From Tragulus kanchil (Eukaryota; Chordata; Mammalia; Artiodactyla; Tragulidae), in the NCBI GenBank assembly GCA_022376925.1, contig JAIOJX010000005.1, positions 12,552,501 to 12,616,500 of the forward strand: a DNA stretch of 64,000 nt. The letters are read 5' to 3'. Position numbers and translations under genes: made by a program. Under the pieces are notes generated by a model. The model was not told the origin of the DNA and did no database searches. It saw only the letters and a program-made list of their open reading frames with translations. The first letter of the stretch is position 1. Every line of letters starts with the position of its first letter. Of this stretch, positions 316 to 60,168 are shown in pieces.

Positions 316-465
316 TCACAAAAGAATTGTCAGTGGGAGGAATGAAGATTCAGATTTATAGGAGGTTGTTGGTGATAATATTCAGATACCTGTCTTGTAG
401 GTAGTTCATTTAGTACGGTTTATTGTAAGCCATGAAATGGGATGTAAAGGGCCAGAACTCTTTGT

Positions 466-549
466 TTTTTATGGGTGTTTTTGCCATGCCAGGAGGCTTG
501 TGGGATCCTAGTTCCCTGACTAGGGATTGAACCCAGGCTCGTGGTAGTA
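466..549 (-). mobile_element. CHR-type SINE fragment
   Basis: On the minus strand this shows the middle of a tRNA-Glu-derived CHR SINE: the plus strand has TGTGGGATCCTAGTTCCCTG followed by the reverse complement of a decayed B box (GGGATTGAACCC). The 5' head is missing, so this is a partial copy. It is repeated at 1563-1646 by duplication 1. Confidence 0.6.
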
Positions 550-636
550 TAGACTTGGATGTAGGTTAGAGAATTTTAAGCATGACAGTGTTTGGTTTTT
601 GTAAGTGCAGGAGAGCCGAATCTGATCTGCACCTGG

Positions 637-759
637 GGCCTTCCCTCCTGGTCGAGTGGCTGAGATTCCAAGATTCCAGTGTGGGAGTGGGGGGAGTGGC
701 AGTCCTCTCATCAGGGAACTCATGGATCCCATATTCCATGTAGCCAAAGGGAAAGAAAG

Positions 760-762
<3 letters not shown>
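637..762 (+). mobile_element. CHR-2-like SINE, diverged
   Basis: The plus strand has the SINE head (GGCCTTCCCTCCTGGTC), a decayed internal promoter region, then CAGGGAACTCATGGATCCC and a final GTAGCCAAAGG before an A-rich tail. It lies in opposite orientation to the fragment at 466-549. A second copy sits at 1734-1859. Confidence 0.6.
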
Positions 763-790
<28 letters not shown>

Positions 791-803
791 CACACACACA
801 TAT
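748..803. repeat. SINE tail microsatellite (A)n(TA)n(CA)n
   Basis: An A-rich tail grades into TA dinucleotides and then CA dinucleotides, a usual maturation of SINE tails. The second copy (1845-1896) is 2 bases shorter, the only length difference in the interior of duplication 1. Confidence 0.8.
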
Positions 804-1562
804 GTATAATCTGCATGTGGGAGGGCTTCCAGGCAGTCTGCACAGAGAATTTGTAGGAAGTGACTGGTTTGCCAGGTAACCTGCCCAGGGCATTTTGTGT
901 TTGCCCTAGATTGCCTTTCTGTCATTCTTCACTGCATTGTGATTCACATGATGCCCAAAGAAAAATGAATGAATATATCATGGTATGCACAATTCAAATG
1001 AATTTTGAATTTCAGGTCAAATTCAGAACACTTAAGAGCAAAATGCATCCTTTTGCATTCCTACTTTCTCTGCATGCACTTTCTGTGCATTTACATGCAT
1101 ATTTACATAGACGATGCAGGATCACCGCACCCCCCCCTCCCCGCCGTGGGCCTCTTTTTAGTAATGAAATCACGGTCGTGTTGGGTGCTCTAGCCTTTTC
1201 TCACTATGTCTGTCTTCTCCGTGCTTCCCTGTCACTCTCTCCAGTGCTCTGATCTACCCGAGAGGACCAGTGCGCTTAGTTTATTCACCCACCCAGTAGG
1301 ATTCCCTCCTTAGAACAGTGCCTGGCATTTAGGAAGCCTCAGTAGACACTTAGGTTGTTAGCTTTGTCTTGTTTACTTACAGTCAGAACCCCCCCGTGTG
1401 CAGGGTATCTGCTCACAAAAGAATTGTCAGTGGGAGGAATGAAGATTCAGATTTATAGGAGGTTGTTGGTGATAATATTCAGATACCTGTCTTGTAGGTA
1501 GTTCATTTAGTACGGTTTATTGTAAGCCATGAAATGGGATGTAAAGGGCCAGAACTCTTTGT

Positions 1563-1646
1563 TTTTTATGGGTGTTTTTGCCATGCCAGGAGGCTTGTGG
1601 GATCCTAGTTCCCTGACTAGGGATTGAACCCAGGCTCGTGGTAGTA
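1563..1646 (-). mobile_element. CHR-type SINE fragment (copy B)
   Basis: Duplicate of 466-549 created by duplication 1; same orientation and same truncation. Confidence 0.55.
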
Positions 1647-1733
1647 TAGACTTGGATGTAGGTTAGAGAATTTTAAGCATGACAGTGTTTGGTTTTTGTA
1701 AGTGCAGGAGAGCCGAATCTGATCTGCACCTGG

Positions 1734-1896
1734 GGCCTTCCCTCCTGGTCGAGTGGCTGAGATTCCAAGATTCCAGTGTGGGAGTGGGGGGAGTGGCAGT
1801 CCTCTCATCAGGGAACTCATGGATCCCATATTCCATGTAGCCAAAGGGAAAGAAAGAAAAAAAAAAAAAAATATATATATATATACACACACACAT
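1734..1896 (+). mobile_element. CHR-2-like SINE plus tail (copy B)
   Basis: Duplicate of the element at 637-803, including the A/TA/CA tail. Confidence 0.6.
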
Positions 1897-2489
1897 ATGT
1901 ATAATCTGCATGTGGGAGGGCTTCCAGGCAGTCTGCACAGAGAATTTGTAGGAAGTGACTGGTTTGCCAGGTAACCTGCCCAGGGCATTTTGTGTTTGCC
2001 CTAGATTGCCTTTCTGTCATTCTTCACTGCATTGTGATTCACATGATGCCCAAAGAAAAATGAATGAATATATCATGGTATGCACAATTCAAATGAATTT
2101 TGAATTTCAGGTCAAATTCAGAACACTTAAGAGCAAAATGCATCCTTTTGCATTCCTACTTTCTCTGCATGCACTTTCTGTGCATTTACATGCATATTTA
2201 CATAGACGATGCAGGATCACCGCACCCCCCCCTCCCCGCCGTGGGCCTCTTTTTAGTAATGAAATCACGGTCGTGTTGGGTGCTCTAGCCTTTTCTCACT
2301 ATGTCTGTCTTCTCCGTGCTTCCCTGTCACTCTCTCCAGTGCTCTGATCTACCCGAGAGGACCAGTGCGCTTAGTTTATTCACCCACCCAGTAGGATTCC
2401 CTCCTTAGAACAGTGCCTGGCATTTAGGAAGCGCTCAGTAGACACTTAGGTTGTTAGCTTTGTCTTGTTTACTTACAGTCAGATTTCTT

Positions 2490-4340: not shown

Positions 4341-4342
4341 AA

Positions 4343-4606: not shown

Positions 4607-5120
4607 GTGTATCAGACTTATGTTAAAACCCATCTGATGAAAGAACAGAAGGTCTATGCTGGTTGACTGAGCCATCTGCAACTTCTGAAGTCTCTGTAGG
4701 GTCATTCTTCATACATTGGTTAGACAGGTGTGGCGTTCTTCCTTCTAGGCCAGTGTTTCTCCTGAAACAGCTGTTCTCTGAGTGTTGCTTCCCTAATACC
4801 GACCACCCCCTGGGAACCTCATCCTCCCACTTCATACTAGCTTCTCTTTGCTGTCTGCCCCTGGCTCCTTTGCCCACTTGACAGATAGTGAAAGGAATGC
4901 AGTGATCACCTTAAAGCCTTTGTGGGAGGGTTTCCGTTGCTCTGAGCCCGGCCTTCAGGCTGAGCTTGCCAAGTTCCGATGAATCTGCACTTCTGCCCGC
5001 ACAATCCAGAGAGGTCTCCTTGAGCTGTTGCGGTTCTCATTCTCTGAGCACATGCCCTTACCTAGTTCCAAGGCACTTGTAACCTTTTGGAGTCCTGTAC
5101 AATCAGTTGATCCTTTTCTT

Positions 5121-5258
5121 TTTTAAATATTTATTTATATAAGGCTGTGCTGGGTCTTAGTTGCAGTATGTGGGATCTCGCTCCCTGACCAGGGATTGAA
5201 CCCAGGCCCCCTGCACTGGAAGCCTGAGTCTTAGCCACTGGACCACCAGAGGAGTCCC
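5121..5258 (-). mobile_element. CHR-2-like short SINE
   Basis: The plus strand runs AAGGCTGTGCTGGGTC, TGTGGGATCTCGCTCCCTGA, B-box complement GGGATTGAACCC, then GGACCACCAGAGGAGTCCC. Candidate target-site duplications are GATCCTTTTCTT (5109-5120) and GATCCTTCTCTT (5260-5271). Copy B of duplication 2 repeats it at 6245-6382. Confidence 0.85.
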
Positions 5259-5360
5259 AGATCCTTCTCTTGAAATTCTCATCAAAATACAGCCATCAGA
5301 GTATGGAAAAGCAAAATTTGTGATATGGTAAAACACGTTTATTCCTGAAAAGTTCAAATG

Positions 5361-5554
5361 TCAGTTGTGTCTGACTCTTTGCGAGCCTTTGGACGGTAGC
5401 CCGCCAGGCGTCTCTGTCCATGGGAGTCTCCAGGCAAAAATACTGGAGTCGGTTGCCATTTTCTTTTCCAGGGGATCTTCCCAATCCAGGGATCGAACGT
5501 GGATCTCCTACCTTGGAGGCAGATTCTTGAGCATCTGAGCCACCAGGGAAGCCC
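5361..5554 (-). mobile_element. Bov-tA-type ruminant SINE
   Basis: The plus strand reads the reverse complement of a Bov-tA element: GTGTCTGACTCTTTGCGAGC, a GTCTCTGTCCATGGGAGTC segment, the B-box complement GGGATCGAAC, and the head complement AGCCACCAGGGAAGCCC. This family is specific to ruminants and is the best taxonomic marker here. Flanking TTTATTCCTGAA (about 5338) and TTTACTTCTGAA (about 5556) may be a diverged target-site duplication. Confidence 0.9.
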
Positions 5555-6244
5555 ATTTACTTCTGAATCTTCTATTAAATAACGAGCCCTAATGGTGGGC
5601 TTCTTTCAAAGCAGTGATAGCAAGTACTGTTTGCTGTTGTCTGCAGCCACTGTAATGTGATGGGAAAATCTGTAATTCTGATTTTACCAAAAATTAGTAA
5701 TTTTGATGATAGCCAAGTTTGCAGATATCTATTGATCATTTACTTAGTCAAACACACTCATTCAAGTAGACAGTTTCTTGGATTTTGACAGCCCAGTTTA
5801 ACCCTATTCTGAAGTCTCTGTAGGGTCATTCTTCATACATTGGTTAGACAGGTGTGGCGTTCTTCCTTCTAGGCCAGTGTTTCTCCTGAAACAGCTGTTC
5901 TCTGAGTGTTGCTTCCCTAATACCGACCACCCCCTGGGAACCTCATCCTCCCACTTCATACTAGCTTCTCTTTGCTGTCTGCCCCTGGCTCCTTTGCCCA
6001 CTTGACAGATAGTGAAAGGAATGCAGTGATCACCTTAAAGCCTTTGTGGGAGGGTTTCCGTTGCTCTGAGCCCGGCCTTCAGGCTGAGCTTGCCAAGTTC
6101 CGATGAATCTGCACTTCTGCCCGCACAATCCAGAGAGGTCTCCTTGAGCTGTTGCGGTTCTCATTCTCTGAGCACATGCCCTTACCTAGTTCCAAGGCAC
6201 TTGTAACCTTTTGGAGTCCTGTACAATCAGTTGATCCTTTTCTT

Positions 6245-6382
6245 TTTTAAATATTTATTTATATAAGGCTGTGCTGGGTCTTAGTTGCAGTATGTGGGAT
6301 CTCGCTCCCTGACCAGGGATTGAACCCAGGCCCCCTGCACTGGAAGCCTGAGTCTTAGCCACTGGACCACCAGAGGAGTCCC
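6245..6382 (-). mobile_element. CHR-2-like short SINE (copy B)
   Basis: Duplicate of 5121-5258 produced by duplication 2, with the same flanking candidate target-site duplications. Confidence 0.8.
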
Positions 6383-6484
6383 AGATCCTTCTCTTGAAAT
6401 TCTCATCAAAATACAGCCATCAGAGTATGGAAAAGCAAAATTTGTGATATGGTAAAACACGTTTATTCCTGAAAAGTTCAAATG

Positions 6485-6678
6485 TCAGTTGTGTCTGACT
6501 CTTTGCGAGCCTTTGGACGGTAGCCCGCCAGGCGTCTCTGTCCATGGGAGTCTCCAGGCAAAAATACTGGAGTCGGTTGCCATTTTCTTTTCCAGGGGAT
6601 CTTCCCAATCCAGGGATCGAACGTGGATCTCCTACCTTGGAGGCAGATTCTTGAGCATCTGAGCCACCAGGGAAGCCC
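6485..6678 (-). mobile_element. Bov-tA-type SINE (copy B)
   Basis: Duplicate of 5361-5554. Duplication 3 starts inside its head, so only the last about 22 bases appear a third time at 7744-7765. Confidence 0.85.
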
Positions 6679-7156
6679 ATTTACTTCTGAATCTTCTATT
6701 AAATAACGAGCCCTAATGGTGGGCTTCTTTCAAAGCAGTGATAGCAAGTACTGTTTGCTGTTGTCTGCAGCCACTGTAATGTGATGGGAAAATCTGTAAT
6801 TCTGATTTTACCAAAAATTAGTAATTTTGATGATAGCCAAGTTTGCAGATATCTATTGATAATTTACTTAGTCAAACACACTCATTCAAGTAGACAGTTT
6901 CTTGGATTTTGACAGCCCAGTACATATTCCTGGGCAGCCACCACGCAGGTCAGATTGTGGTCGTCACCTTAAGTGGTCCTTCCTGCCTGCAGTTCTGTCT
7001 TCTCAGTCACTCTTGTAATTTCTGTCACAAAGGTAAGTACTGCCTGTCTTAATTTTTTATATTGGACTGTAATTGCTTTGAGGTGTTTTTAGTGTCTGCT
7101 CTATGAAAAAGGAATCAACTGTGTGTAGTTCCTTCCCTCTTGGGCCTCGCTGCCAC

Positions 7157-7560
7157 TCACCACACATGATTTTTTTCAGGTGGATTTGTGTTGTTGCATT
7201 TATCAGTAGCTGATTCCTTTCTCATTGGTGAATAGTACTCCATCGTATGGTTATGCCACAGCTCATTTTTATTCTTACTGATCAGCAGACTTTCCGGTGG
7301 TTTGCGGTTTTTGGCTGAGGATTGCTCTGAACCTTTCAATTCATGGCTTGGGTGTAGTCAGTTGGATTTCATGTCTTTGGAGTCAGTCAATCCTTAGGTA
7401 TGTGATTGGGTTATAAATTAAGGGTACATTTACCTTTATAAGAAACTGCCATCCAGTTCTCCAGAACGCTTACACCACCTCGCCGCCCTGAGCAGTCCAG
7501 TGGCTCTAGGTCCATGGTCGGGCTTCCTGACTTCGTTCAGTGGTTCGTGGTCCTATAGTC
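7157..7560 (-). mobile_element. L1 LINE 3' fragment with ORF2 C-terminal remnant
   Basis: The minus-strand frame 7157-7339 contains MEYYSPMRKE (codons near 7230-7243), matching the L1 ORF2 C-terminal signature MEYYSAMKK. The rest is short and decayed, with no reverse transcriptase or endonuclease. It is a dead fragment; sequence to its right (to about 7560) resembles adjoining L1 sequence, but that limit is approximate. Confidence 0.75.
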
Positions 7561-8243
7561 TCTGGCCAGAATCAAGGTCACACGATGTACATTTGGTTTT
7601 CAGATGAGTTTAAAAATGCTTTACGAATTCCCAGTAGCTTGAGCTTGTACAGTTACTCAGTAGCATCTTGGCTGAGAGTGTTAGCCTGCTTTTCTTAGGT
7701 TAGAAATGCTGCGTTGTTCGTCTTAAAGTTCTGACTCTATTACATCTGAGCCACCAGGGAAGCCCATTTACTTCTGAATCTTCTATTAAATAACGAGCCC
7801 TAATGGTGGGCTTCTTTCAAAGCAGTGATAGCAAGTACTGTTTGCTGTTGTCTGCAGCCACTGTAATGTGATGGGAAAATCTGTAATTCTGATTTTACCA
7901 AAAATTAGTAATTTTGATGATAGCCAAGTTTGCAGATATCTATTGATAATTTACTTAGTCAAACACACTCATTCAAGTAGACAGTTTCTTGGATTTTGAC
8001 AGCCCAGTACATATTCCTGGGCAGCCACCACGCAGGTCAGATTGTGGTCGTCACCTTAAGTGGTCCTTCCTGCCTGCAGTTCTGTCTTCTCAGTCACTCT
8101 TGTAATTTCTGTCACAAAGGTAAGTACTGCCTGTCTTAATTTTTTATATTGGACTGTAATTGCTTTGAGGTGTTTTTAGTGTCTGCTCTATGAAAAAGGA
8201 ATCAACTGTGTGTAGTTCCTTCCCTCTTGGGCCTCGCTGCCAC

Positions 8244-8647
8244 TCACCACACATGATTTTTTTCAGGTGGATTTGTGTTGTTGCATTTATCAGTAGCTGA
8301 TTCCTTTCTCATTGGTGAATAGTACTCCATCGTATGGTTATGCCACAGCTCATTTTTATTCTTACTGATCAGCAGACTTTCCGGTGGTTTGCGGTTTTTG
8401 GCTGAGGATTGCTCTGAACCTTTCAATTCATGGCTTGGGTGTAGTCAGTTGGATTTCATGTCTTTGGAGTCAGTCAATCCTTAGGTATGTGATTGGGTTA
8501 TAAATTAAGGGTACATTTACCTTTATAAGAAACTGCCATCCAGTTCTCCAGAACGCTTACACCACCTCGCCGCCCTGAGCAGTCCAGTGGCTCTAGGTCC
8601 ATGGTCGGGCTTCCTGACTTCGTTCAGTGGTTCGTGGTCCTATAGTC
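8244..8647 (-). mobile_element. L1 LINE 3' fragment (copy B)
   Basis: Duplicate of 7157-7560 through duplication 3; the ORF2 remnant at 8244-8426 translates identically. Confidence 0.72.
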
Positions 8648-9124
8648 TCTGGCCAGAATCAAGGTCACACGATGTACATTTGGTTTTCAGATGAGTTTAA
8701 AAATGCTTTACGAATTCCCAGTAGCTTGAGCTTGTACAGTTACTCAGTAGCATCTTGGCTGAGAGTGTTAGCCTGCTTTTCTTAGGTTAGAAATGCTGCG
8801 TTGTTCGTCTTAAAGTTCTGACTCTATTACCAAACCCGCTTTTACACGTGCAGTTTGTCTTTCTGTGGAGGAGGCGGAGGAGCTGTTACACCCAGTTCTC
8901 AGTGACTGAAATGGTCTGCCTTCTTAACTTGTGTCAGATCTGAAGTAGCAGTGAAGTCAGGAAGGGGGATTTCTTGGGCTGGAGGAGGAGGGAGCCTGGA
9001 GCCTCAGCTGAAGGGGGTGTAGCTGAGAGCTGGTGACTCCCAGGTCACAGTGGCCTCGCGTGGTGGGTCGCGTGTGGGCAGGCAGACCCTCCCGGCTTGG
9101 GGCTGGGCTGCTGCCTTCCTGCAT

Positions 9125-9420
9125 ACATGGCACACTTGTGTTTTAAAATAATATTCAAAAAAATAAGTAACACACAGACAGACCGCAGAAAGGCAAAAAA
9201 GTTACCCCTAGCTCCACTGCTCCTTACAACTGTTATGAGCATTTTGCCGTATGTATATTTTTAACAGCTGTTCTTTCCCTCTGTGAAAATGTTTTGGTAA
9301 TCCTGTGGTATATACGGTTTTGATTCTCTATTTTTTCCACTAGATATCATCATGAGCATTTCCTCATGTGATTACATATTTTCCATAGTAACAGGTTTTT
9401 TTCCGCCATCTCATTGCCAA
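9125..9420 (-). mobile_element. Ancient LINE-like fragment (L1M/HAL1 style)
   Basis: The stretch resembles the reverse complement of old LINE 3' sequence, with typical phrases such as ATGAGCATTTCCTCATGTGATTA. The family is not secure without a repeat search. It is duplicated at 10208-10503. Confidence 0.4.
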
Positions 9421-10207
9421 CTTTTCTGAATCAACCCCTTCACTTTAGGTTTTCATAATGAGTGAGTCTGAGGTCTTCCCCAGGTTTGCCCTGTGGGCTG
9501 AGGCTTTTGGTGTTTGTTCTTTCTACAATAACAATTCTAGTGGGGGGGGCAACTATTCAATGTATGTATAACTGCAATTTCCCAGATTTTATTACTGTTA
9601 TTTTAATTTTATTTTAAGATGTATGACCAAGTACACAATTACTAGGTCAATGGAAGTGACCATCTTAAAAATACATCTCTTGTGTTTTGCCAAATGACTC
9701 CCCAGAAATAGGGCACTGCCACTCTCCAGTAAGCGCTGTTCCCGTACAGCACCTCAGAGCCCCTGGGATATTTAAATGTTAACTCTGTGAAATCCCACAG
9801 TCACCGGGAAGATAGGTTATAATGTCAGCTCGAGGTAGCACATCATGTCAGGAAATTTTGTGCAGGTATCGAGAATATTCTGGTGAATGCATTCAGGACT
9901 GTCATTTGACTGCTTGACTGAACTTGCAGTTTGTCTTTCTAGTGGAAGGAAAAAGGCGGGAGGAGCTGTTACACCCAGTTCTCAGTGACTGAAATGGTCT
10001 GCCTTCTTAACTTGTGTCAGATCTGAAGTAGCAGTGAAGTCAGGAAGGGGGATTTCTTGGGCTGGAGGAGGAGGGAGCCTGGAGCCTCAGCTGAAGGGGG
10101 TGTAGCTGAGAGCTGGTGACTCCCAGGTCACAGTGGCCTCGCGTGGTGGGTCGCGTGTGGGCAGGCAGACCCTCCCGGCTTGGGGCTGGGCTGCTGCCTT
10201 CCTGCAT

Positions 10208-10503
10208 ACATGGCACACTTGTGTTTTAAAATAATATTCAAAAAAATAAGTAACACACAGACAGACCGCAGAAAGGCAAAAAAGTTACCCCTAGCTCCAC
10301 TGCTCCTTACAACTGTTATGAGCATTTTGCCGTATGTATATTTTTAACAGCTGTTCTTTCCCTCTGTGAAAATGTTTTGGTAATCCTGTGGTATATACGG
10401 TTTTGATTCTCTATTTTTTCCACTAGATATCATCATGAGCATTTCCTCATGTGATTACATATTTTCCATAGTAACAGGTTTTTTTCCGCCATCTCATTGC
10501 CAA
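10208..10503 (-). mobile_element. Ancient LINE-like fragment (copy B)
   Basis: Duplicate of 9125-9420 through duplication 4. Confidence 0.38.
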
Positions 10504-11350
10504 CTTTTCTGAATCAACCCCTTCACTTTAGGTTTTCATAATGAGTGAGTCTGAGGTCTTCCCCAGGTTTGCCCTGTGGGCTGAGGCTTTTGGTGTTTGT
10601 TCTTTCTACAATAACAATTCTAGTGGGGGGGGCAACTATTCAATGTATGTATAACTGCAATTTCCCAGATTTTATTACTGTTATTTTAATTTTATTTTAA
10701 GATGTATGACCAAGTACACAATTACTAGGTCAATGGAAGTGACCATCTTAAAAATACATCTCTTGTGTTTTGCCAAATGACTCCCCAGAAATAGGGCACT
10801 GCCACTCTCCAGTAAGCGCTGTTCCCGTACAGCACCTCAGAGCCCCTGGGATATTTAAATGTTAACTCTGTGAAATCCCACAGTCACCGGGAAGATAGGT
10901 TATAATGTCAGCTCGAGGTAGCACATCATGTCAGGAATACTTTGTGTGCAGGTATCGAGAATATTCTGGTGAATGCATTCAGGACTGTCATTTGACTGCT
11001 TGACTGAACTTGGCCATTTGAAAACTGTGTATCGCTAAAACAGTCCAAGAAACTGATTGGTTAAAAGATTACCGAGTTAGTTCTAGGGTTATCGATTGCT
11101 TATTTCTACTGCCCCAATGCACAGGATTTTGAAACAGTTTGAAGACACAGATCTATGCTTTTCCCTTCCGAGGCTTAAAGTGCATTTAATGCTTTTGAAC
11201 CTGCCCTAGTTCGTTCACTGTGGGTCCCTGGACTGGAGTGTCACGAAGTGTCATCAGCCTTTGTGATTGCTGATTTGTGTTTGGATTTAGATCAGTTGCC
11301 TTGTTTCCCCTACTGATGATGCAGTGATCTGTAGTAATGGCAGAATTCAT

Positions 11351-11370
11351 GTGTGTGTGTGTTTGTGTGC
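11351..11370. repeat. (GT)n microsatellite
   Basis: A short GT run with one interrupting T at the tail end of the minus-strand Bov-tA element. Copy B is at about 12516-12536, followed by a 2-base loss relative to copy A. Confidence 0.75.
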
Positions 11371-11374
11371 ACGC

Positions 11375-11586
11375 CCGCTCAGTAGCTCAGTTGTGTCTGA
11401 CTCTTGATGATCCTTTGGACTGTAGCCCACCAGAATCCTCTGCCCGTGGGTGTCCTGCTCAAGGCTACTGGAGTGGGTTGCCGTTGCCTCCTCCAGGGGA
11501 CTTTCCCTACCTAGGGATCGAACCTGCATCACCCGAGTGGGCACTTGCATCTCCCGAGTTCTTTACCACTGAGCCACCGGGGAAGC
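11375..11586 (-). mobile_element. Bov-tA-type ruminant SINE
   Basis: The plus strand shows GTTGTGTCTGACTCTTGATG, CTGGAGTGGGTTGCCGTTGC, the intact B-box complement GGGATCGAACC at 11514-11524, and head complement GAGCCACCGGGGAAG. The (GT)n at the left is its decayed tail. Confidence 0.88.
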
Positions 11587-12538
11587 AGGGAAGACAGGTG
11601 CACAGACTGACTGTAATGCCTCAGGAAACTTAGGGACACACCTGGGCCTTTCAGGATCTTTCAGGAAGTTAGGCGCCTACCTTGTGGGAGTGAGAGGGTG
11701 AGTCAGGGCAGGCCCACAGGAAGGCAGTGTCTTTCAAAGCATAAGCAGAAATTAGGTAAAAGCCTGGGGCTTGAATGGTTAAACGCGGAGGGTCAGTGAG
11801 TGTCCCGTCCTGCCCCATCCAGGCCCCCCACGCCACCTCTGCCAAGTCTTCTCTGATCTTGCTGCTTTTCTGTCCACAAAAAGACGTTTCATTTTTTCTT
11901 TTAAATAACCTAGAAAAGGAAAGACTTCTATGTTGGTAACATTTTCACTAAGTAAAAGTGAATGCTGTCTTTTATTATTCTTGGCATACTTCTTGGCATA
12001 AGTTAGTGCACTTGGGCATTTTAGGTGTTCCGTACAGCACCTCAGAGCCCCTGGGATATTTAAATGTTAACTCTGTGAAATCCCACAGTCACTGTAACAG
12101 GAATACTTTGTGTGCAGGTATCGAGAATATTCTGGTGAATGCATTCAGGACTGTCATTTGACTGCTTGACTGAACTTGGCCATTTGAAAACTGTGTATCG
12201 CTAAAACAGTCCAAGAAACTGATTGGTTAAAAGATTACCGAGTTAGTTCTAGGGTTATCGATTGCTTATTTCTACTGCCCCAATGCACAGGATTTTGAAA
12301 CAGTTTGAAGACACAGATCTATGCTTTTCCCTTCCGAGGCTTAAAGTGCATTTAATGCTTTTGAACCTGCCCTAGTTCGTTCACTGTGGGTCCCTGGACT
12401 GGAGTGTCACGAAGTGTCATCAGCCTTTGTGATTGCTGATTTGTGTTTGGATTTAGATCAGTTGCCTTGTTTCCCCTACTGATGATGCAGTGATCTGTAG
12501 TAATGGCAGAATTCATGTGTGTGTGTGTTTGTGTGCAG

Positions 12539-12751
12539 CCCGCTCAGTAGCTCAGTTGTGTCTGACTCTTGATGATCCTTTGGACTGTAGCCCACCAGAA
12601 TCCTCTGCCCGTGGGTGTCCTGCTCAAGGCTACTGGAGTGGGTTGCCGTTGCCTCCTCCAGGGGACTTTCCCTACCTAGGGATCGAACCTGCATCACCCG
12701 AGTGGGCACTTGCATCTCCCGAGTTCTTTACCACTGAGCCACCGGGGAAGC
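12539..12751 (-). mobile_element. Bov-tA-type SINE (copy B)
   Basis: Duplicate of 11375-11586 through duplication 5, same orientation and B box. Confidence 0.85.
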
Positions 12752-13329
12752 AGGGAAGACAGGTGCACAGACTGACTGTAATGCCTCAGGAAACTTAGGG
12801 ACACACCTGGGCCTTTCAGGATCTTTCAGGAAGTTAGGCGCCTACCTTGTGGGAGTGAGAGGGTGAGTCAGGGCAGGCCCACAGGAAGGCAGTGTCTTTC
12901 AAAGCATAAGCAGAAATTAGGTAAAAGCCTGGGGCTTGAATGGTTAAACGCGGAGGGTCAGTGAGTGTCCCGTCCTGCCCCATCCAGGCCCCCCACGCCA
13001 CCTCTGCCAAGTCTTCTCTGATCTTGCTGCTTTTCTGTCCACAAAAAGACGTTTCATTTTTTCTTTTAAATAACCTAGAAAAGGAAAGACTTCTATGTTG
13101 GTAACATTTTCACTAAGTAAAAGTGAATGCTGTCTTTTATTATTCTTGGCATACTTCTTGGCATAAGTTAGTGCACTTGGGCATTTTTAGTGTGTTCTGA
13201 TGGTGTCATTTTGGAGTATTTGAGCTTACAGATTTTGCCAGAGAAGACAGCAGCAGTGGCAAATCTTTCTAAAGCTGGGATATTTTGATATCCTCCCATC
13301 TCAGAATTCCTGTGATTCTTTTTCACTTA

Positions 13330-17374: not shown

Positions 17375-17681
17375 GGAACAGGCCTCCAGAAGCGCCCGGT
17401 TTCCTGCTCAGTTCGGCCTGGGAGGGAGAATAAGAGCAAGTCCATCTGGTTCAGCCGAGACCTGTGGCCATGGTCTCGGCTCCCTTTTTTCCCACTGCAG
17501 CTAGCTTGGGGGCCACGCAGCTGGCCTCCATGGCAGGTTCCAGAGCAACCCTCATTGGGCCGGAAGTTATTGCGGCAACCTCTGCCTGTTTCCTCACTTC
17601 AGAGAGGTGGGCGTGGGCATGGGGGGATGAGATAAGGCGTTTTGTATTGAATCATATTTTCTGTTGGTCTGACTTGCCTTG
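17375..17681. other. Single-copy GC-richer spacer
   Basis: Unique sequence between duplications 6 and 7. A short plus frame (17464-17682) has no recognisable domain and no clear splice context. Confidence 0.4.
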
Positions 17682-43819: not shown

Positions 43820-43855
43820 ACTAGGAGCCCATCGTGACTAGGAGCCCATCGTGAC
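43820..43855. repeat. 17-bp perfect tandem duplication
   Basis: ACTAGGAGCCCATCGTG occurs twice head to tail at 43820-43836 and 43837-43853. It is present identically in both 1.1-kb copies (again at 44936-44971), so it predates whatever made the large duplication and is likely real. Confidence 0.9.
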
Positions 43856-44935: not shown

Positions 44936-44971
44936 ACTAGGAGCCCATCGTGACTAGGAGCCCATCGTGAC
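44936..44971. repeat. 17-bp perfect tandem duplication (copy B)
   Basis: Same short repeat as 43820-43855, carried by duplication 15. Confidence 0.88.
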
Positions 44972-45407
44972 GTTTGCCTGGGCGCCCTCCCACCCCCTCT
45001 TTAACCAAAAAGCACCTCATGGTTCGAGGCAGGCCTGATTCCTGGGTGTGCCTGTGCGAAGGTTGGCCAGCCTCATTAGAGAAGATTTTGGGGAGCAGAG
45101 ACAGTGAGGGATGGCAAAGGTACCTAAAACTTCTTGGGATTCCCAGATTGCTCAGGATGTTATAAACAGTAAGCGTGGCCTTTGATCTTGGAGGGTGGTG
45201 CGGGGCAGGCATGCGGGGGTGGTGGTTCCCGAGAAGAGAGCTGGAGCCAGACAACCATTAGGGCCTGTCCAGAGGCTGCTGTGAGTCCCAGTGGCAGGGA
45301 GCCCTGTGCTTGCCACTAATTTCTATTTTCTTTGCTGTGGTTTGCTTTATTAAAAGGGCATAAGGAAGCAGCCTAGACGTTCAGTTCTAATCAGTTTTCT
45401 GAGCTAA

Positions 45408-47189: not shown

Positions 47190-49302
47190 TTTTACCTTAA
47201 GAGCAAGGAAATCCTAAAAAATGACTCATAATGGTTATTTCTGGATTGTCTACTTGAGGCTGTGCTCACACACGTGTTCAGAATATTAGGTTCAGAACAT
47301 ATTGCATTTCTGCAAAAATACACGTTTACCCAAGAATTAAGTCACTTCAAATGATGTTTGACGAGGAAATATTTAACAGGTTTGAAAATGTTAGTTGGGT
47401 CATAAGACACTTGGTTGTAGCTTATTATTACTTTTGCTTTCTATGTTCCAAGTACTGGAGGCAGTGAAACCAGACTGTTCAACAGCAAGGACTGAGAGCA
47501 CCAGCAGACTTAACTGCTTCATACCTCGTCTGCAGAAGACACATTTCTTTAGCACCTCATGAACGTTCTTTTACAGACTAATTGCTGCGTTCTTCTTTGG
47601 TTCAACGGCTAAGCAAAGTAACAACAGCCAAAATACTTTCCTAGATAGGAGTTAGTCAGTGATAATAGAACATGAGTTAGAGCTCAGGTTTTGTAATTGA
47701 AGCCTTCTTAGTTCTTCAGATTGGTGTCCAGAAGTTGATGGGATGGTGGGAAATCTTCATCCGTCTTGACTGGTGGAATGAAAAACGTGTAAATGTCATG
47801 TCAGATGTACCAAGAAGGATAGGAAATGGCACAGGGATGGCTTGTGGGACCTGAGTTTTCAGGGGACAGTCAGAACAAGGGAAAGGTATGTGTGGGACCT
47901 GCAGTTGTGATCTTAACCTGGTGAAGAACAGATGCTCAGAGAGTACGGGCTATGTGTTCATTATTCTGTGGATAGTTTAGTATTGCTTGCAGTGGCGCAC
48001 CAGACATGTTATCCCTCAGCGTATTTCCTGGTGCCCGAGAGGGTCCAGGGAGATGCTGAGGTGTGCGCTTTGAATAGCATCCTTTTCTTGAGTCCTTGCC
48101 TTTTCCACAGGATGGGATATTAAACAACAGCATCTGCCGTGTAAGGATGGAGTGAGTTTGAATCACACGGAAATGCTTAGATAGTCCCTGGCACATGTTC
48201 AGAGTGTTCAGACACTCTTGTAAACTGAAACCTGGGCAGTATATTTTACCTTAAGAGCAAGGAAATCCTAAAAAATGACTCATAATGGTTATTTCTGGAT
48301 TGTCTACTTGAGGCTGTGCTCACACACGTGTTCAGAATATTAGGTTCAGAACATATTGCATTTCTGCAAAAATACACGTTTACCCAAGAATTAAGTCACT
48401 TCAAATGATGTTTGACGAGGAAATATTTAACAGGTTTGAAAATGTTAGTTGGGTCATAAGACACTTGGTTGTAGCTTATTATTACTTTTGCTTTCTATGT
48501 TCCAAGTACTGGAGGCAGTGAAACCAGACTGTTCAACAGCAAGGACTGAGAGCACCAGCAGACTTAACTGCTTCATACCTCGTCTGCAGAAGACACATTT
48601 CTTTAGCACCTCATGAACGTTCTTTTACAGACTAATTGCTGCGTTCTTCTTTGGTTCAACGGCTAAGCAAAGTAACAACAGCCAAAATACTTTCCTAGAT
48701 AGGAGTTAGTCAGTGATAATAGAACATGAGTTAGAGCTCAGGTTTTGTAATTGAAGCCTTCTTAGTTCTTCAGATTGGTGTCCAGAAGTTGATGGGATGG
48801 TGGGAAATCTTCATCCGTCTTGACTGGTGGAATGAAAAACGTGTAAATGTCATGTCAGATGTACCAAGAAGGATAGGAAATGGCACAGGGATGGCTTGTG
48901 GGACCTGAGTTTTCAGGGGACAGTCAGAACAAGGGAAAGGTATGTGTGGGACCTGCAGTTGTGATCTTAACCTGGTGAAGAACAGATGCTCAGAGAGTAC
49001 GGGCTATGTGTTCATTATTCTGTGGATAGTTTAGTATTGCTTGCAGTGGCGCACCAGACATGTTATCCCTCAGCGTATTTCCTGGTGCCCGAGAGGGTCC
49101 AGGGAGATGCTGAGGTGTGCGCTTTGAATAGCATCCTTTTCTTGAGTCCTTGCCTTTTCCACAGGATGGGATATTAAACAACAGCATCTGCCGTGTAAGG
49201 ATGGAGTGAGTTTGAATCACACGAGAAATGCTTAGATAGTCCCTGGCACATGTTCAGAGTGTTCAGACACTCTTGTAAACTGAAACCTGGGCAGTATATT
49301 TT
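47190..49302. repeat. Duplication 16: direct 1.05-kb tandem pair
   Basis: Copy A is 47190-48243 and copy B 48244-49302, offset 1054 with no spacer. One indel is visible near the end (CACACGGAAATG against CACACGAGAAATG). The junction shares only the few bases TTTTACC/TTTTGCC. No mobile element recognised within it. Confidence 0.95.
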
Positions 49303-51371: not shown

Positions 51372-51665
51372 TTGCATTCCACAAGCAGTGTATAAGGGTT
51401 CAGTTTGGGCCCTGCAGGGTTCATTTGTACTTGGTCTTGTCAGCTTTGCGTCTCTGACCATTTTAATAGATAGGCACTAGAATCTTACCATGGTTTTATT
51501 CTGCATTTCCCTAGTGACTCATAAATGTTTTGCATCTCTTCATGTGTGTGTTTGCTCATTTAAAGTTGAGTTGTTTTCTTATTATCAAGTATTGAGAAAA
51601 TTTTAAAATACGTTGTGGATATGGATCCTGTGGTTAAGTGTGTTTTGTCCTTTTTCTGTGTGAAT

Positions 51666-52000
51666 TTGCTGAAGGCTGCTGTAAGAAAGTGCCCCACACT
51701 GAGTGGCTTAAATTCTAAAAGTTCTCTCACAGCTCTGGAGGCCAGGAGGCTGAGATCAGGCTGGCTTCTTCTGCGGGCTTCCTCCTGGTTCCTGGTCGCC
51801 TCTCCCGTATCTTCGCATCTTCTCCTCTGCACACGTCCAGACTTCCTCTGTTTATAAAAGGACACCGGGCCAGGTGGAGTGGGCCCCACCCTAGTGACCT
51901 CATTTTAACTCAGTCACCTCTGTGAATACTGTCTCACAAAGGCAGTCACATTCTGAGGTACAGACCTAAGGTTACGTTTGGGCAGGGGCCACAGCTCACG
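51666..52000. mobile_element. Ancient interspersed repeat, family unassigned
   Basis: GCCCCACACTGAGTGGCTTA, CTCACAGCTCTGGAGGCCAG, CCACCCTAGTGACCTCATTT and GGCAGTCACATTCTGAGGTA recur together in a well-known mammalian interspersed repeat, but I cannot name the family safely from memory. It is duplicated at 52740-53074. Confidence 0.55.
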
Positions 52001-52739
52001 CCAAGTGACATTTTTTAACGTGCATTGTCATCCGTAGAACAGAACCATTGTTATTTCAGTGAAGCTCAATTTACCTTGACCAGTTCCTCCTCTTTGTATT
52101 CTAAGATCTCATGGCAAGGATTATCTCCTGTGTTTCCTCTAGTAGTTCAATCATGTTTTTTACATTTGGGCTCTGACCACTTGTGAAGTTTTGTTTGGTG
52201 CAAAGGGTGAGTCAAAGGATTTTGTTGTTGTTGTTAAAAACGAGTCTCCTTTAATTTTTGGTTGAAAACTCCAGGCCCTTTGGCAAACTAATTCATGCTC
52301 TTGCCAGAGCATTTCAACAGCACAGAAGGAAATAAAGTTACAAACTCTCCACCTTGTCCAATCTCTTTTCCTAGAGGAAATTCTTTCAGAGTTTTCCTCT
52401 GTATTTGTATAATTTCATCTTCCTCCTCCTCCAATTTTGAAACTTGATTTTTTTCACTTAATCACAGAAGGCCCCGGAGTCTGTTGGTTACTTTCTCAGA
52501 GGCTGAGAGGGAAGGCGAGAAGGGCTGCTGGCTGGTGCTATTGGGGTCGCCCGTGTTTCACATGGTTTTATTCTGCATTTCCCTATTTTGACTCATAAAT
52601 GTTTTGCATCTCTTCATGTGTGTGTTTGCTCATTTAAAGTTGAGTTGTTTTCTTATTATCAAGTATTGAGAAAATTTTAAAATACGTTGTGGATATGGAT
52701 CCTGTGGTTAAGTGTGTTTTGTCCTTTTTCTGTGTGAAT

Positions 52740-53074
52740 TTGCTGAAGGCTGCTGTAAGAAAGTGCCCCACACTGAGTGGCTTAAATTCTAAAAGTTCTC
52801 TCACAGCTCTGGAGGCCAGGAGGCTGAGATCAGGCTGGCTTCTTCTGCGGGCTTCCTCCTGGTTCCTGGTCGCCTCTCCCGTATCTTCGCATCTTCTCCT
52901 CTGCACACGTCCAGACTTCCTCTGTTTATAAAAGGACACCGGGCCAGGTGGAGTGGGCCCCACCCTAGTGACCTCATTTTAACTCAGTCACCTCTGTGAA
53001 TACTGTCTCACAAAGGCAGTCACATTCTGAGGTACAGACCTAAGGTTACGTTTGGGCAGGGGCCACAGCTCACG
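52740..53074. mobile_element. Ancient interspersed repeat (copy B)
   Basis: Duplicate of 51666-52000 through duplication 17. Confidence 0.52.
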
Positions 53075-53689
53075 CCAAGTGACATTTTTTAACGTGCATT
53101 GTCATCCGTAGAACAGAACCATTGTTATTTCAGTGAAGCTCAATTTACCTTGACCAGTTCCTCCTCTTTGTATTCTAAGATCTCATGGCAAGGATTATCT
53201 CCTGTGTTTCCTCTAGTAGTTCAATCATGTTTTTTACATTTGGGCTCTGACCACTTGTGAAGTTTTGTTTGGTGCAAAGGGTGAGTCAAAGGATTTTGTT
53301 GTTGTTTTTAAAAAACGAGTCTCCTTTAATTTTTGGTTGAAAACTCCAGGCCCTTTGGCAAACTAATTCATGCTCTTGCCAGAGCATTTCAACAGCACAG
53401 AAGGAAATAAAGTTACAAACTCTCCACCTTGTCCAATCTCTTTTCCTAGAGGAAATTCTTTCAGAGTTTTCCTCTGTATTTGTATAATTTCATCTTCCTC
53501 CTCCTCCAATTTTGAAACTTGATTTTTTTCACTTAATCACAGAAGGCCCCGGAGTCTGTTGGTTACTTTCTCAGAGGCTGAGAGGGAAGGCGAGAAGGGC
53601 TGCTGGCTGGTGCTATTGGGGTCGCCCGTGTTTCACACTGAAATCCCTGTTGTGAGTCTGTAAGGAGAGGAGCTTGTGTGCCGTGAGTT

Positions 53690-55339: not shown

Positions 55340-55530
55340 TGATTATAGGAAACTGCCAACCTATGCAAAAGTAGTGTACATCATCTAATGTACCTCCGCG
55401 CACCCATCTCCTGGCTCCAACATGCCCAGCGTGGAGTCAGTGTGGTTTTGTTTATAATGTCTGCTTCCACCCCTTGGATTGTGGTAAAAGCAGATTTCAG
55501 ACAGATCATTTAATATGTAAACATTCCATT
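55340..55530. mobile_element. Possible L1M fragment
   Basis: AACCTATGCAAAAGTAGTGTAC, CGCACCCATCTCCTGGCTCC and GATTTCAGACAGATCATTTAA resemble, in the same order and orientation, the L1M-type sequence at 13330-13578. Weak similarity. Confidence 0.35.
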
Positions 55531-55779
55531 ATTCAACTTAAAAAAGATGAGGATTCTGTCTCCAGAAGGCACAGCCGGGATACTGATCATATAGATAATA
55601 GTTTTTAATATGAAACAACTAGTCAGTGCTCAGATTTCCTTTACTGTGTGTCTCTTTTGCCCCTGTAATTCGTTGAGTAACGGGGTCCTTTGTCCTCTGG
55701 GGTGCAGCTTGTGGCTGTGTGAGTGTGTGTGTGCGCGTGTGCGTGGTCTCATCTCCCAGCAGCCTTTGGGAGAGATCTA

Positions 55780-58014
55780 ATGGGGTGGACAGGGATTCGC
55801 TGTGAGCAGCGACCTGGCTGTGGGTTTGTTCCCACCTCATCTTCCCTTCTGGCCCGTCTGCACCTCCCTCAGCTGCACTTTTTTTGGGGTGTGTATCTAC
55901 GATAAGTATAGTGTTCCTTGGTACCTGAGCACTTCTGTGAGATCCTTACCTCCCGGGGTCTGTGAGTGCTGACACCTGTGGGTGTGTTGTGTGACTGAGA
56001 GCAGACCCTGACGTCCTGGTTCCCCACCTGGGGTCCTGGGTGGGGAGTGGGAGCGAGGCTGAGGCCAGCAGCTGCCACTCCCGTCCTGATGCTGCTCGAC
56101 CTGCCGAGGCCGCGCTGGGCAGAGGGGAGGGTCCAGCCCGTGAGGTCCCTGGGAGAATCTGGTAGAAACAGCCCCTTAGGGTGGTAGAAATTTGGTTCAA
56201 GGGCAGTTTTTACAGAAATGAGAGTCATGCACTTGGAGATGCACAGGGCCTGTGAGAGGCTTCTTGCCTCTCAGGTTTTATGTTCTTACCCTTCAGGACT
56301 CAGGGTCGTCCCCTTGGCAGAGCCGTCTCCGTTCCCCTGAGTAGCTGTGGCCTCCACACTGGCGTTTCTGTCTCCACGCGGGTCCCACAGGCTCTTCCTG
56401 TGTCCCTTGGTGCCTTTCCCGCTCGAGCTGCCCCGGCCCCTATGGCTCCGTCCTGTGAGTGGCTTGCTGGGGAATATTTGTTGACCACAGGCCTGTCTGC
56501 TCAGTAAATGTTGGCGGAACAAAAGACTCACCCCAAGTGAGAGTTCACGCAGGGAAAATTCCAGGAGGTGTGAGGCTTAAGGGTCGGTCTCCTGCAACAC
56601 CCCGAGGAGGGCCCTGCCACATGATGCGGGTCCCCCAGTAGGTTCTGACAAGAAGGTTCCGGAACTGTGCAGTGTTCCGGGGTCATTGTTTGTCTTTGCA
56701 GGGATGACATGGCCGTACATGCGCTGTGCTTGGTGAATAGCTACAGTCCACTGAAGGCTCACTCCTGTTGTTACAGAAGGTGGGGTGGAAGCCTGAGGCC
56801 GCTCATCCAAGTTGTCGAATGCTGTATCAGTGCCACCCCAAAGCCAGAATGGTGAGAACATGGCACCCAGTCATAACGAGACTGTGCTCTGTGACCATCT
56901 GGGGTGGACAGGGATTCGCTGTGAGCAGCGACCTGGCTGTGGGTTTGTTCCCACCTCATCTTCCCTTCTGGCCCGTCTGCACCTCCCTCAGCTGCACTTT
57001 TTTTGGGGTGTGTATCTACGATAAGTATAGTGTTCCTTGGTACCTGAGCACTTCTGTGAGATCCTTACCTCCCGGGGTCTGTGAGTGCTGACACCTGTGG
57101 GTGTGTTGTGTGACTGAGAGCAGACCCTGACGTCCTGGTTCCCCACCTGGGGTCCTGGGTGGGGAGTGGGAGCGAGGCTGAGGCCAGCAGCTGCCACTCC
57201 CGTCCTGATGCTGCTCGACCTGCCGAGGCCGCGCTGGGCAGAGGGGAGGGTCCAGCCCGTGAGGTCCCTGGGAGAATCTGGTAGAAACAGCCCCTTAGGG
57301 TGGTAGAAATTTGGTTCAAGGGCAGTTTTTACAGAAATGAGAGTCATGCACTTGGAGATGCACAGGGCCTGTGAGAGGCTTCTTGCCTCTCAGGTTTTAT
57401 GTTCTTACCCTTCAGGACTCAGGGTCGTCCCCTTGGCAGAGCCGTCTCCGTTCCCCTGAGTAGCTGTGGCCTCCACACTGGCGTTTCTGTCTCCACGCGG
57501 GTCCCACAGGCTCTTCCTGTGTCCCTTGGTGCCTTTCCCGCTCGAGCTGCCCCGGCCCCTATGGCTCCGTCCTGTGAGTGGCTTGCTGGGGAATATTTGT
57601 TGACCACAGGCCTGTCTGCTCAGTAAATGTTGGCGGAACAAAAGACTCACCCCAAGTGAGAGTTCACGCAGGGAAAATTCCAGGAGGTGTGAGGCTTAAG
57701 GGTCGGTCTCCTGCAACACCCCGAGGAGGGCCCTGCCACATGATGCGGGTCCCCCAGTAGGTTCTGACAAGAAGGTTCCGGAACTGTGCAGTGTTCCGGG
57801 GTCATTGTTTGTCTTTGCAGGGATGACATGGCCGTACATGCGCTGTGCTTGGTGAATAGCTACAGTCCACTGAAGGCTCACTCCTGTTGTTACAGAAGGT
57901 GGGGTGGAAGCCTGAGGCCGCTCATCCAAGTTGTCGAATGCTGTATCAGTGCCACCCCAAAGCCAGAATGGTGAGAACATGGCACCCAGTCATAACGAGA
58001 CTGTGCTCTGTGAC
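55780..58014. repeat. Duplication 18: direct 1.12-kb tandem pair
   Basis: Copy A is 55780-56895 and copy B 56900-58014, constant offset 1119. Chance frames on both strands translate identically between copies. The unit is GC-rich and shows no recognised mobile element. The end of the unit is used again by duplication 19. Confidence 0.95.
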
Positions 58015-60168
58015 CTCAAAGCACGAGATGGAAGTTGTCAAGTCACCCCATCTCACACCAACACCCCCGTGGGTCTTAAGGATGGGGTTGCTGCTGGACG
58101 GCTACTCGTCAGGCTCTTAGGGTGTTGAGTCCATTAGATCTGCAGGCCGAGAGGCTCTGGCCGGTGAGAACGGGCTGGGAGCCCCGGCAGCCGCGGCGCT
58201 GGAGGCAGCCTCCGCCTGCGGCGCCCTCCAGGCCGGGGTCTTGCTCGTGCTTTTTGCCTTGGTCCCAAGAAGTGTCCCCACACCCATGGGGTAGATCCCG
58301 TGACTCAGGGAAGCAAACTAGATCAGAAACAGGAGCCCAGAGGACAGTCTGTGTATCAGTGCTTGTATTTAATGAGGCAGAAACAGGGTCCTTTTGATAC
58401 GTTTGCAATATGTGGGATCCCTTAGTCCTCCAGCCCCTTTCTTCCTCTTGCCGTTCCTTGGGACTCCGGCCTGGGATTTTTCTCTCTGTGATTGTGAGTG
58501 TTCCTACCAGGGGAGGGGGTTGATGGGGGTGGGGTGAGTGGGATGGGGAGGGGTGGGCCTGGAGAAGGCAGCTGCTGCCCGCTCTGCTGGGGAGAGCTGA
58601 CAGCCAGGCGTGATCTACAGGGGCTTAGAGCACCAGGGAGGGGGCGGCTTGAGATGAGTTCATCAGGGTTCTGCCCCTTCCTTCGTGGCGGGCTCACAGT
58701 CCACTGTGTGTGTGTGTGGGTGTGCAGGTGGAACACACTGGATGGTATGATGACCTCTTTTACTACCCTCATTTGATGGTGTGTGTGTGTCCAGATAGCG
58801 GCTCCCTTTCATGAGCGATAGTTTCCGTGGGTTAAACCACTTACGCTCAGTCTGCCTTGTGAAGGTCAGGCAGCTCGATTGGATGGATGTCTCTTATTTG
58901 TCTTCCCGTTTCCGGGGTTGTTATGCAGTGTTAGCAAAGTTCTGGGTTTCTTTTGCTTACCCACAGAGTACCTTTATTCTTCTTGAGGGAGGAAAATAAA
59001 GAGCACGAATCCTGTGCTAGGTTACCAATGTTTATCTTGTTTTCTGGGAAAACAGTTTTGTAGCTGGACCTCAAAGAAAAACATGGCACCCAGTCATAAC
59101 GAGACTGTGCTCTGTGACCTCAAAGCACGAGATGGAAGTTGTCAAGTCACCCCATCTCACACCAACACCCCCGTGGGTCTTAAGGATGGGGTTGCTGCTG
59201 GACGGCTACTCGTCAGGCTCTTAGGGTGTTGAGTCCATTAGATCTGCAGGCCGAGAGGCTCTGGCCGGTGAGAACGGGCTGGGAGCCCCGGCAGCCGCGG
59301 CGCTGGAGGCAGCCTCCGCCTGCGGCGCCCTCCAGGCCGGGGTCTTGCTCGTGCTTTTTGCCTTGGTCCCAAGAAGTGTCCCCACACCCATGGGGTAGAT
59401 CCCGTGACTCAGGGAAGCAAACTAGATCAGAAACAGGAGCCCAGAGGACAGTCTGTGTATCAGTGCTTGTATTTAATGAGGCAGAAACAGGGTCCTTTTG
59501 ATACGTTTGCAATATGTGGGATCCCTTAGTCCTCCAGCCCCTTTCTTCCTCTTGCCGTTCCTTGGGACTCCGGCCTGGGATTTTTCTCTCTGTGATTGTG
59601 AGTGTTCCTACCAGGGGAGGGGGTTGATGGGGGTGGGGTGAGTGGGATGGGGAGGGGTGGGCCTGGAGAAGGCAGCTGCTGCCCGCTCTGCTGGGGAGAG
59701 CTGACAGCCAGGCGTGATCTACAGGGGCTTAGAGCACCAGGGAGGGGGCGGCTTGAGATGAGTTCATCAGGGTTCTGCCCCTTCCTTCGTGGCGGGCTCA
59801 CAGTCCACTGTGTGTGTGTGTGGGTGTGCAGGTGGAACACACTGGATGGTATGATGACCTCTTTTACTACCCTCATTTGATGGTGTGTGTGTGTCCAGAT
59901 AGCGGCTCCCTTTCATGAGCGATAGTTTCCGTGGGTTAAACCACTTACGCTCAGTCTGCCTTGTGAAGGTCAGGCAGCTCGATTGGATGGATGTCTCTTA
60001 TTTGTCTTCCCGTTTCCGGGGTTGTTATGCAGTGTTAGCAAAGTTCTGGGTTTCTTTTGCTTACCCACAGAGTACCTTTATTCTTCTTGAGGGAGGAAAA
60101 TAAAGAGCACGAATCCTGTGCTAGGTTACCAATGTTTATCTTGTTTTCTGGGAAAACAGTTTTGTAGA
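57977..60168. repeat. Duplication 19: direct 1.10-kb tandem pair
   Basis: Copy A is 57977-59061 and copy B 59081-60168, constant offset 1104, with about 19 junction bases (59062-59080) that resemble a fragment of 58010-58022 (GACCTCAAAG). Sequence 56858-56895, 57977-58014 and 59081-59118 is triplicated. Confidence 0.95.
58700..58725. repeat. (GT)n microsatellite
   Basis: A GT run with interruptions at about 58704-58722; copy B at about 59808-59826. Confidence 0.75.

What the first reader, a model, noticed from the sequence alone, without database searches (positions are those of the whole stretch)
316..60168. Nineteen ~1.1-kb back-to-back direct duplications scattered over one 60-kb stretch
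Seen directly: start-to-start offsets are 1097, 1124, 1087, 1076, 1205, 1102, 1086, 1103, 1133, 1161, 1135, 1135, 1077, 1113, 1120, 1054, 1072, 1120 and 1104. Each involves different sequence, so it is not one repeat family; only the length is shared. Copies are near-identical in their interiors. No transposon, segmental-duplication or replication mechanism I know makes many independent tandem duplications of fixed size regardless of content. The most likely cause is overlapping consensus pieces concatenated without overlap removal. If instead real and fixed, it would be a new kind of genome-wide duplication process.
Basis: partly seen in the sequence, partly recalled or inferred. Interest (0 to 1): 0.93.

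Follow-up and report, generated by a model that had tools for sequence, protein, structure and literature searches.

The report
Untrimmed overlaps in a draft assembly
The nineteen back-to-back 1.1-kb repeats are really in the file but almost certainly not in the animal: this assembly was pieced together from overlapping consensus fragments whose ~1.1-kb overlaps were left in, and the same fault shows in every other part of the genome that was sampled, even inside a replication gene.

Summary
In detail: 19 adjacent direct duplications, offset 1057-1206 bp (mean 1111), at the stated places, each of different sequence; second copies are 20,888 of 64,000 bp. They are an assembly artefact. (1) The window's own 3.17-Gb genome shows such pairs in 14 of 14 ten-kb stretches obtained, on 14 contigs; 30.9% of their bases are second copies. 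(2) Differences between copies crowd into the outer 150 bp and have a direction: the copy that begins a piece lacks bases at the overlap's start, the copy that ends a piece lacks them at its end (56 of 62 pairs used, p = 5e-19). (3) Where three pieces overlap, the middle copy is the odd one in 0 of 111 differing columns. (4) MCM helicase exons are doubled ~1.1 kb apart in 8 of 14 loci; in MCM7 a junction cuts the core exon and jumps back about 175 residues. Best mechanism: consensus units of a long-read assembler sharing about 1024 bp or more, concatenated without overlap removal (wtdbg/wtdbg2-like, inferred). Not a biological feature.

The parts
316..2483 (.). pair 1: end of one unit 316-1387, start of next 1413-2483 (25 unmatched bp between)
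   Evidence: alignment: 1070 matches, 2 differences
4683..6921 (.). pair 2: 4683-5797 and 5807-6921
   Evidence: 1114 matches, 1 difference
6656..8830 (.). pair 3: 6656-7743 and 7743-8830; overlaps pair 2, giving a triple copy
   Evidence: 1088 matches, 0 differences
8849..11012 (.). pair 4: 8849-9926 and 9925-11012
   Evidence: 1078 matches, 7 differences, all within about 75 bp of an edge
10820..13197 (.). pair 5: 10820-12030 and 12026-13197; triple copy with pair 4; second copy lacks 18 and 21 bp near its start
15197..17374 (.). pair 6: 15197-16282 and 16299-17374
   Evidence: 1076 matches, 4 differences in the first 70 bp
17673..19832 (.). pair 7: 17673-18747 and 18762-19832
   Evidence: 1071 matches, 2 differences
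20504..22709 (.). pair 8: 20504-21606 and 21607-22709
   Evidence: 1103 matches, 0 differences
22341..24562 (.). pair 9: 22341-23472 and 23474-24562; triple copy with pair 8, in which the piece-start copy alone carries the differences
   Evidence: 54 of 54 differing columns odd in the piece-start copy
25812..28125 (.). pair 10: 25812-26964 and 26973-28125
   Evidence: 1152 matches, 1 difference
27973..30240 (.). pair 11: 27973-29102 and 29108-30240; triple copy with pair 10
31800..34040 (.). pair 12: 31800-32912 and 32934-34040
   Evidence: 1104 matches, 6 differences
33742..35888 (.). pair 13: 33742-34792 and 34819-35888; triple copy with pair 12
38440..40649 (.). pair 14: 38440-39534 and 39553-40649
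   Evidence: 1091 matches, 6 differences
43182..45407 (.). pair 15: 43182-44288 and 44303-45407
   Evidence: 1102 matches, 6 differences
47177..49302 (.). pair 16: 47177-48247 and 48234-49302
   Evidence: 1067 matches, 3 differences
51489..53637 (.). pair 17: 51489-52562 and 52561-53637
   Evidence: 1072 matches, 4 differences
55781..58015 (.). pair 18: 55781-56896 and 56900-58015
   Evidence: 1116 matches, 0 differences
57976..60167 (.). pair 19: 57976-59063 and 59080-60167; triple copy (40 bp) with pair 18
   Evidence: 1088 matches, 0 differences

Best explanation
The duplications are an assembly artefact. The sequence is a chain of consensus units, here about 1.9-4.8 kb long. Neighbouring units were called from the same long reads and share a stretch of about 1024 bp or more; they were written end to end without the shared stretch being removed (or the merging step failed), so it stands twice at each junction that can be recognised (a junction merged properly would be invisible). 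Noisy consensus at the thinly covered unit ends makes the small, deletion-biased differences and the few unmatched bases at the joints. Units shorter than two overlaps give triple copies. Shown here: occurrence in every stretch sampled, edge-confined directional noise, lower length limit of 1020-1024, cut MCM exons. Inferred: thin coverage at unit ends; that the software is of the wtdbg/wtdbg2 type (node length 1024 = 4 bins of 256 bp by default, from memory); and that its unit-joining step failed or was skipped.
For: Spread: 14 of 14 ten-kb stretches obtained, on 14 contigs, carry 1-4 pairs each; 43,201 of 139,606 non-N bases are second copies, an underestimate because pairs cut by a stretch end are partly missed. 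Separately, 18 of 40 listed non-window hits of a 1-kb query fall in 9 pairs 1089-1154 bp apart on 7 contigs (only 40 of 696 candidates were scored). Edge noise, 56 pairs kept of 62 found, window included: 12.74 and 9.52 differences per kb in the first and last 150 bp against 1.09 inside; at the start B lacks bases in 64 events and A in 18, at the end B in 4 and A in 57 (Fisher p = 5.4e-19). Window alone: 57 of 66 differences in the outer 150 bp, p = 1e-23. Triple regions: the odd copy is the piece-start copy in 103, the piece-end copy in 8 and the middle copy in 0 of 111 columns. Length: overlap 1020-1211, offset 1024-1206 in those 56, with offsets 900-1400 allowed by the search. Genes: 16 doubled stretches in 8 of 14 MCM-matching loci; in MCM7 one open frame runs from about residue 470 of the PDB chain straight back to about 295, while the intact 401-532 stretch lies in the next copy.
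Against: No reads, depth or second assembly could be consulted, so the error is inferred from the sequence alone. Collapsing the sampled duplicates predicts about 2.19 Gb, small for a ruminant (about 2.5-2.9 Gb, from memory); collapsed satellites or the small sample could explain this, not tested. Six of 14 MCM loci show no doubling. That MCM7 has a single place in this genome was asked three times and never answered. For the named software: unit steps show no quantisation in any bin of 200-400 bp (best resultant 0.51 against 0.52 expected by chance, 18 steps), mean overlap is 1103 not 1024 (possible if reads carry net deletions; inference), and the listings of eight paper searches did not identify the assembly or its assembler.
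Confidence: 0.98

Rival explanations
1. Same artefact, other program: the overlap-joining failure is that of a chunked polisher or of another layout-consensus assembler rather than wtdbg/wtdbg2. (A variant of the best explanation; the odds given are within it.)
For: Only the overlap length and the irregular unit length point to wtdbg; the assembler is unknown. No bin quantisation was found.
Against: Fixed-chunk polishers would give regular spacing; here it varies from 1867 to 4750 bp. The lower limit near 1024 fits a node length that is a multiple of 256, as are the node lengths chosen by wtdbg2 users (PMC11087460 and PMC10796407, passages).
Confidence: 0.25
2. False duplication from unmerged haplotypes: copy A is one parental allele, copy B the other, placed side by side.
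For: False duplications of this kind are common in draft assemblies (PMC9516828, passages).
Against: 31 of 56 pairs have no interior difference, the interior rate is 1.09/kb, and differences lie at the edges with a direction; alleles would differ evenly. A nearly constant ~1.1-kb length is not expected either.
Confidence: 0.01
3. A real process that makes fixed-size tandem duplications regardless of sequence throughout the genome.
For: The duplications are near-perfect and of nearly constant size.
Against: It would have struck each of the 14 stretches obtained, doubled and cut exons of MCM7 and other MCM genes, and placed differences near junctions in a direction set by the junction. No shared sequence at the joints was seen by eye in the printed flanks (no formal motif test).
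Confidence: 0.005

Closest known systems
[quoted passage not shown] passages and figure legends seen)
   Same: One genomic locus written twice in tandem because overlapping assembly pieces were laid side by side; copies differ in consensus quality; can be misread as exon or gene duplication.
   Different: There: at contig boundaries, with a gap between copies, length often that of a corrected read. Here: no gap (0 N in the window), nearly constant ~1.1 kb, inside contigs, every 2-5 kb in the window, and in all 14 other stretches obtained.
Homotype duplication in the hummingbird assembly, caused by a bug in FALCON (PMC8081667, figure legend)
   Same: A program fault, not biology, made the copies.
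   Different: Different assembler; shown there as an example, not at junction after junction.
wtdbg/wtdbg2 unit overlap (node length; default recalled; option use seen in PMC11087460 and PMC10796407, passages)
   Same: Units share nodes of a set length, in multiples of 256 bp in the settings seen; default 1024 recalled.
   Different: In normal runs the overlaps are merged (recalled); here they are not. Use of the program for this genome is not shown.

Membership tests
False homotype duplication (overlap at piece boundaries) | same locus written twice in tandem | tested here: met
   near-identical adjacent copies; the MCM7 order shows that the repeat does not belong in the gene
False homotype duplication (overlap at piece boundaries) | copies differ in consensus quality at the piece edges | tested here: met
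   directional edge noise; triple-copy arbitration
False homotype duplication (overlap at piece boundaries) | assembly gap between the copies | tested here: not met
   0 N in the window; joints of -14 to +26 bp; so it is filed as like this kind, not as a strict member
False homotype duplication (overlap at piece boundaries) | reduced read depth over the copies; k-mer copy number too high in the assembly | not testable with these tools
   no reads available
wtdbg/wtdbg2 unmerged units | overlap not shorter than the node length (1024 by default, recalled) | tested here: met
   minimum overlap 1020 (edges trimmed by noise), minimum offset 1024, in 56 pairs
wtdbg/wtdbg2 unmerged units | unit steps quantised in 256-bp bins | tested here: inconclusive
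   no periodicity above chance with 18 steps; read-length noise would blur it
wtdbg/wtdbg2 unmerged units | assembly made with that program | not testable with these tools
Real tandem duplication | differences spread along the copies without regard to the junction | tested here: not met
   12.74 and 9.52 against 1.09 differences per kb, edges against interior, with direction
Haplotype (heterotype) false duplication | copies differ by allelic variants along their length | tested here: not met
   31 of 56 pairs without any interior difference

The most novel reading that the evidence does not exclude
A genome in which a content-blind process has laid down ~1.1-kb tandem duplications every few kilobases, tolerated even inside replication genes by splicing or programmed removal.
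Probability: 0.003. Interest if true: 1.

Novelty: not a real feature. Interest (0 to 1): 0.1.

Why it matters
It matters as a warning about data, not as biology. If the rest of the record is like the 14 stretches, about 1 Gb of this 3.17-Gb assembly (0.309 x 3.167 Gb) is repeated text, and gene models, exon counts, segmental-duplication maps and selection tests built on it will be wrong. The signature found here (nearly constant duplicate length with a floor near 1024, edge-confined deletions with a direction set by the junction, triple copies on short units) is a test that needs no reads and can be run on any assembly.

Tried and rejected
Coding content of the window: Pfam on 10 of the 62 ORFs of at least 110 aa gave one match, below its cut-off; Rfam at gathering threshold gave one tRNA match. 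No gene suited to an exon test was found in what I examined (short exons were not sought), so MCM genes elsewhere in the genome were used. Bin quantisation of unit steps: nothing above chance. Identifying the species, the assembler or an earlier report: of eight answered paper searches I saw listings only; passages were seen of PMC9516828, PMC11259980 (not useful), PMC11087460, PMC10796407 and PMC8081667. The wtdbg2 paper is not held; its default node length is recalled. Haplotype duplication was rejected on the sparse interior differences. A second gene family (PF00136) and the test that the MCM7 exon has one place in the genome did not complete.

Rows dropped: one search kept 28 of 30 pairs (one cut by the stretch end, one a fragment of a neighbouring chain); two of the kept 28 have an alignment that stops short (joints of 77 and 119 bp). 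One search kept 56 of 62, dropping those two, the fragment and three pairs that run to a stretch end. One search asked for 20 stretches and got 10, the other ten contigs being shorter than the position asked for. L004-L008 were not analysed beyond their listing.
Full report
WHAT IS THERE. The window holds 19 back-to-back direct duplications. Realigned, the offsets are 1057-1206 bp (mean 1111, sd 35) and copy lengths 1051-1211 bp (mean 1103); second copies total 20,888 of 64,000 bp. Four pairs are identical end to end (pairs 3, 8, 18, 19). The joint between copies is -14 to +26 bp. The 19 segments are unrelated to each other except where chained pairs overlap, plus one 152-bp match at 76% and one 40-bp match at 90%. 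Joints are spaced irregularly, 1867-4750 bp apart. Twenty block-shuffled windows gave no pair, a weak control given blocks of 12 and seeds of 24 bases. In the window and the 14 stretches, repeats of comparable size (200 or more shared 24-mers) at offsets 50-899 were absent, and at 1400-9000 the six found (window three; L010, L014 and L016 one each) are the sums of two neighbouring offsets in triple regions.

UNIT STRUCTURE. The pattern is that of a chain of units, each repeating the end of the one before. Where a unit is shorter than two overlaps, three neighbours share a stretch: six such regions, of 40-369 alignment columns. In them 111 columns differ. The copy at the start of a unit is the odd one in 103, the copy at the end of a unit in 8, the copy in the middle of a unit in none. 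Columns of one deletion are not independent, and 102 of the 111 come from two regions (pairs 4/5 and 8/9), but no difference falls to a middle copy.

DIRECTIONAL EDGE NOISE. In the window 57 of 66 differences lie in the outer 150 bp at either side, which make up 27% of the length (p = 1e-23). At the overlap start bases are missing from copy B in 25 events and from copy A in 7; at the overlap end in 0 and 18 (Fisher p = 5e-8). Ten other stretches repeat this: 37 against 5, and 2 against 32 (p = 1e-13, 28 of 30 pairs). All material together, window included, 56 of 62 pairs: 64/18 and 4/57, p = 5e-19; differences per kb 12.74 (start), 1.09 (inside), 9.52 (end); 31 of 56 pairs have no interior difference. 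This is what deletion-prone consensus at thinly covered piece ends predicts (inference). Age or allelic divergence of real duplicates does not predict it. Events within a pair are not fully independent, so the p values are a guide.

ELSEWHERE IN THE GENOME. The genome in which the window lies is held: 3,167,203,957 bp in 32 contigs, the window being C6:12552501-12616500. A 1-kb query gave 40 listed hits outside the window (40 of 696 candidates scored); 18 of them form 9 pairs 1089-1154 bp apart on C1, C2, C3, C4, C7, C8 and C23. I then took ten-kb stretches at round positions, without looking: 14 of 14 obtained, on 14 contigs, two of them small (C10, C14), contain 1-4 pairs; 43,201 of 139,606 non-N bases (30.9%) are second copies. 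The lowest was L009 with one pair, so some junctions there may have been merged properly or units may be longer. Scaled up, the genome would shrink to about 2.19 Gb, low for a ruminant by memory; this remains unexplained.

CUT GENES. A search with the MCM helicase family (PF00493) gave 57 matches in 14 loci by my grouping; 16 pairs of the same profile stretch lie about 1.1 kb apart, in 8 of the 14 loci. Of the six loci without doubling, four have only two matches within about 700 bp, as intronless copies would (inference), and two have four matches each. I fetched one doubled locus (L023, C31:153060501-153065500). Its complete core stretch matches MCM7 (PDB chain 22vt_7, residues 401-532, E = 1e-81). 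Upstream, an earlier copy breaks off near residue 470 and the same open frame runs on into MCM7 residues from about 295, that is, back to sequence that belongs before it; a third copy begins part-way. The two overlaps there are 1096 and 1137 bp. MCM7 is an essential replication gene (established knowledge). That it has only one place in this genome I could not verify; this locus has the best family score, which does not settle it.

MECHANISM. Consensus units that share a stretch were called from the same reads and written one after another without removing the shared part. The shared length is 1020-1211 bp and the offset never below 1024 in 56 pairs, although offsets from 900 were searched. 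By memory wtdbg2 uses nodes of 1024 bp (4 bins of 256); papers show users setting node lengths of 1536, 2048, 2304 and 2560, all multiples of 256 (PMC11087460; PMC10796407; passages). Reads with net deletions would stretch 1024 read bases to about 1.1 kb of genome (inference). A test for regular bins in the steps between shared stretches was negative, so the program remains an inference (about 0.7); the artefact itself I hold at 0.98.

COMPARISON. The Vertebrate Genomes Project describes false homotype duplications from overlapping sequence at contig boundaries, giving tandem copies with a gap between (PMC8081667, passages); gene errors from false duplications are described in PMC9516828 (passages). 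This case works like that kind but is gapless, so one defining feature is not met; it is also of nearly constant length and recurs every few kilobases. The listings of my searches showed no report of this form; that is a small sample of the literature.

VERDICT. Low interest as a discovery, useful as a quality-control signature.

Noticed in passing
window 1-64000: Strong strand asymmetry: T 19,409 against A 14,671 and G 15,697 against C 14,223 on the + strand, AT skew negative in all sixteen 4-kb bins; could reflect transcription of the + strand, cause not tested.
   Followed up: no
   Followed up: no
window 14041-14276: About three tandem copies (2.9) of a 79-bp unit, outside the 19 pairs.
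   Followed up: no
window 14900-14971 (-): Single Rfam match, tRNA, 31.4 bits against a cut-off of 29; perhaps a tRNA-derived SINE.
   Followed up: no
G000 contigs C14 and C16: Contig lengths are exactly 200,000 and 242,000 bp, as if cut at round numbers during scaffolding.
   Followed up: no
G000 as a whole: At least 16 of 32 contigs exceed 70 Mb (lengths or hit positions), the longest seen 297 Mb; if a ruminant, one with few large chromosomes. Species not identified.
   Followed up: partly
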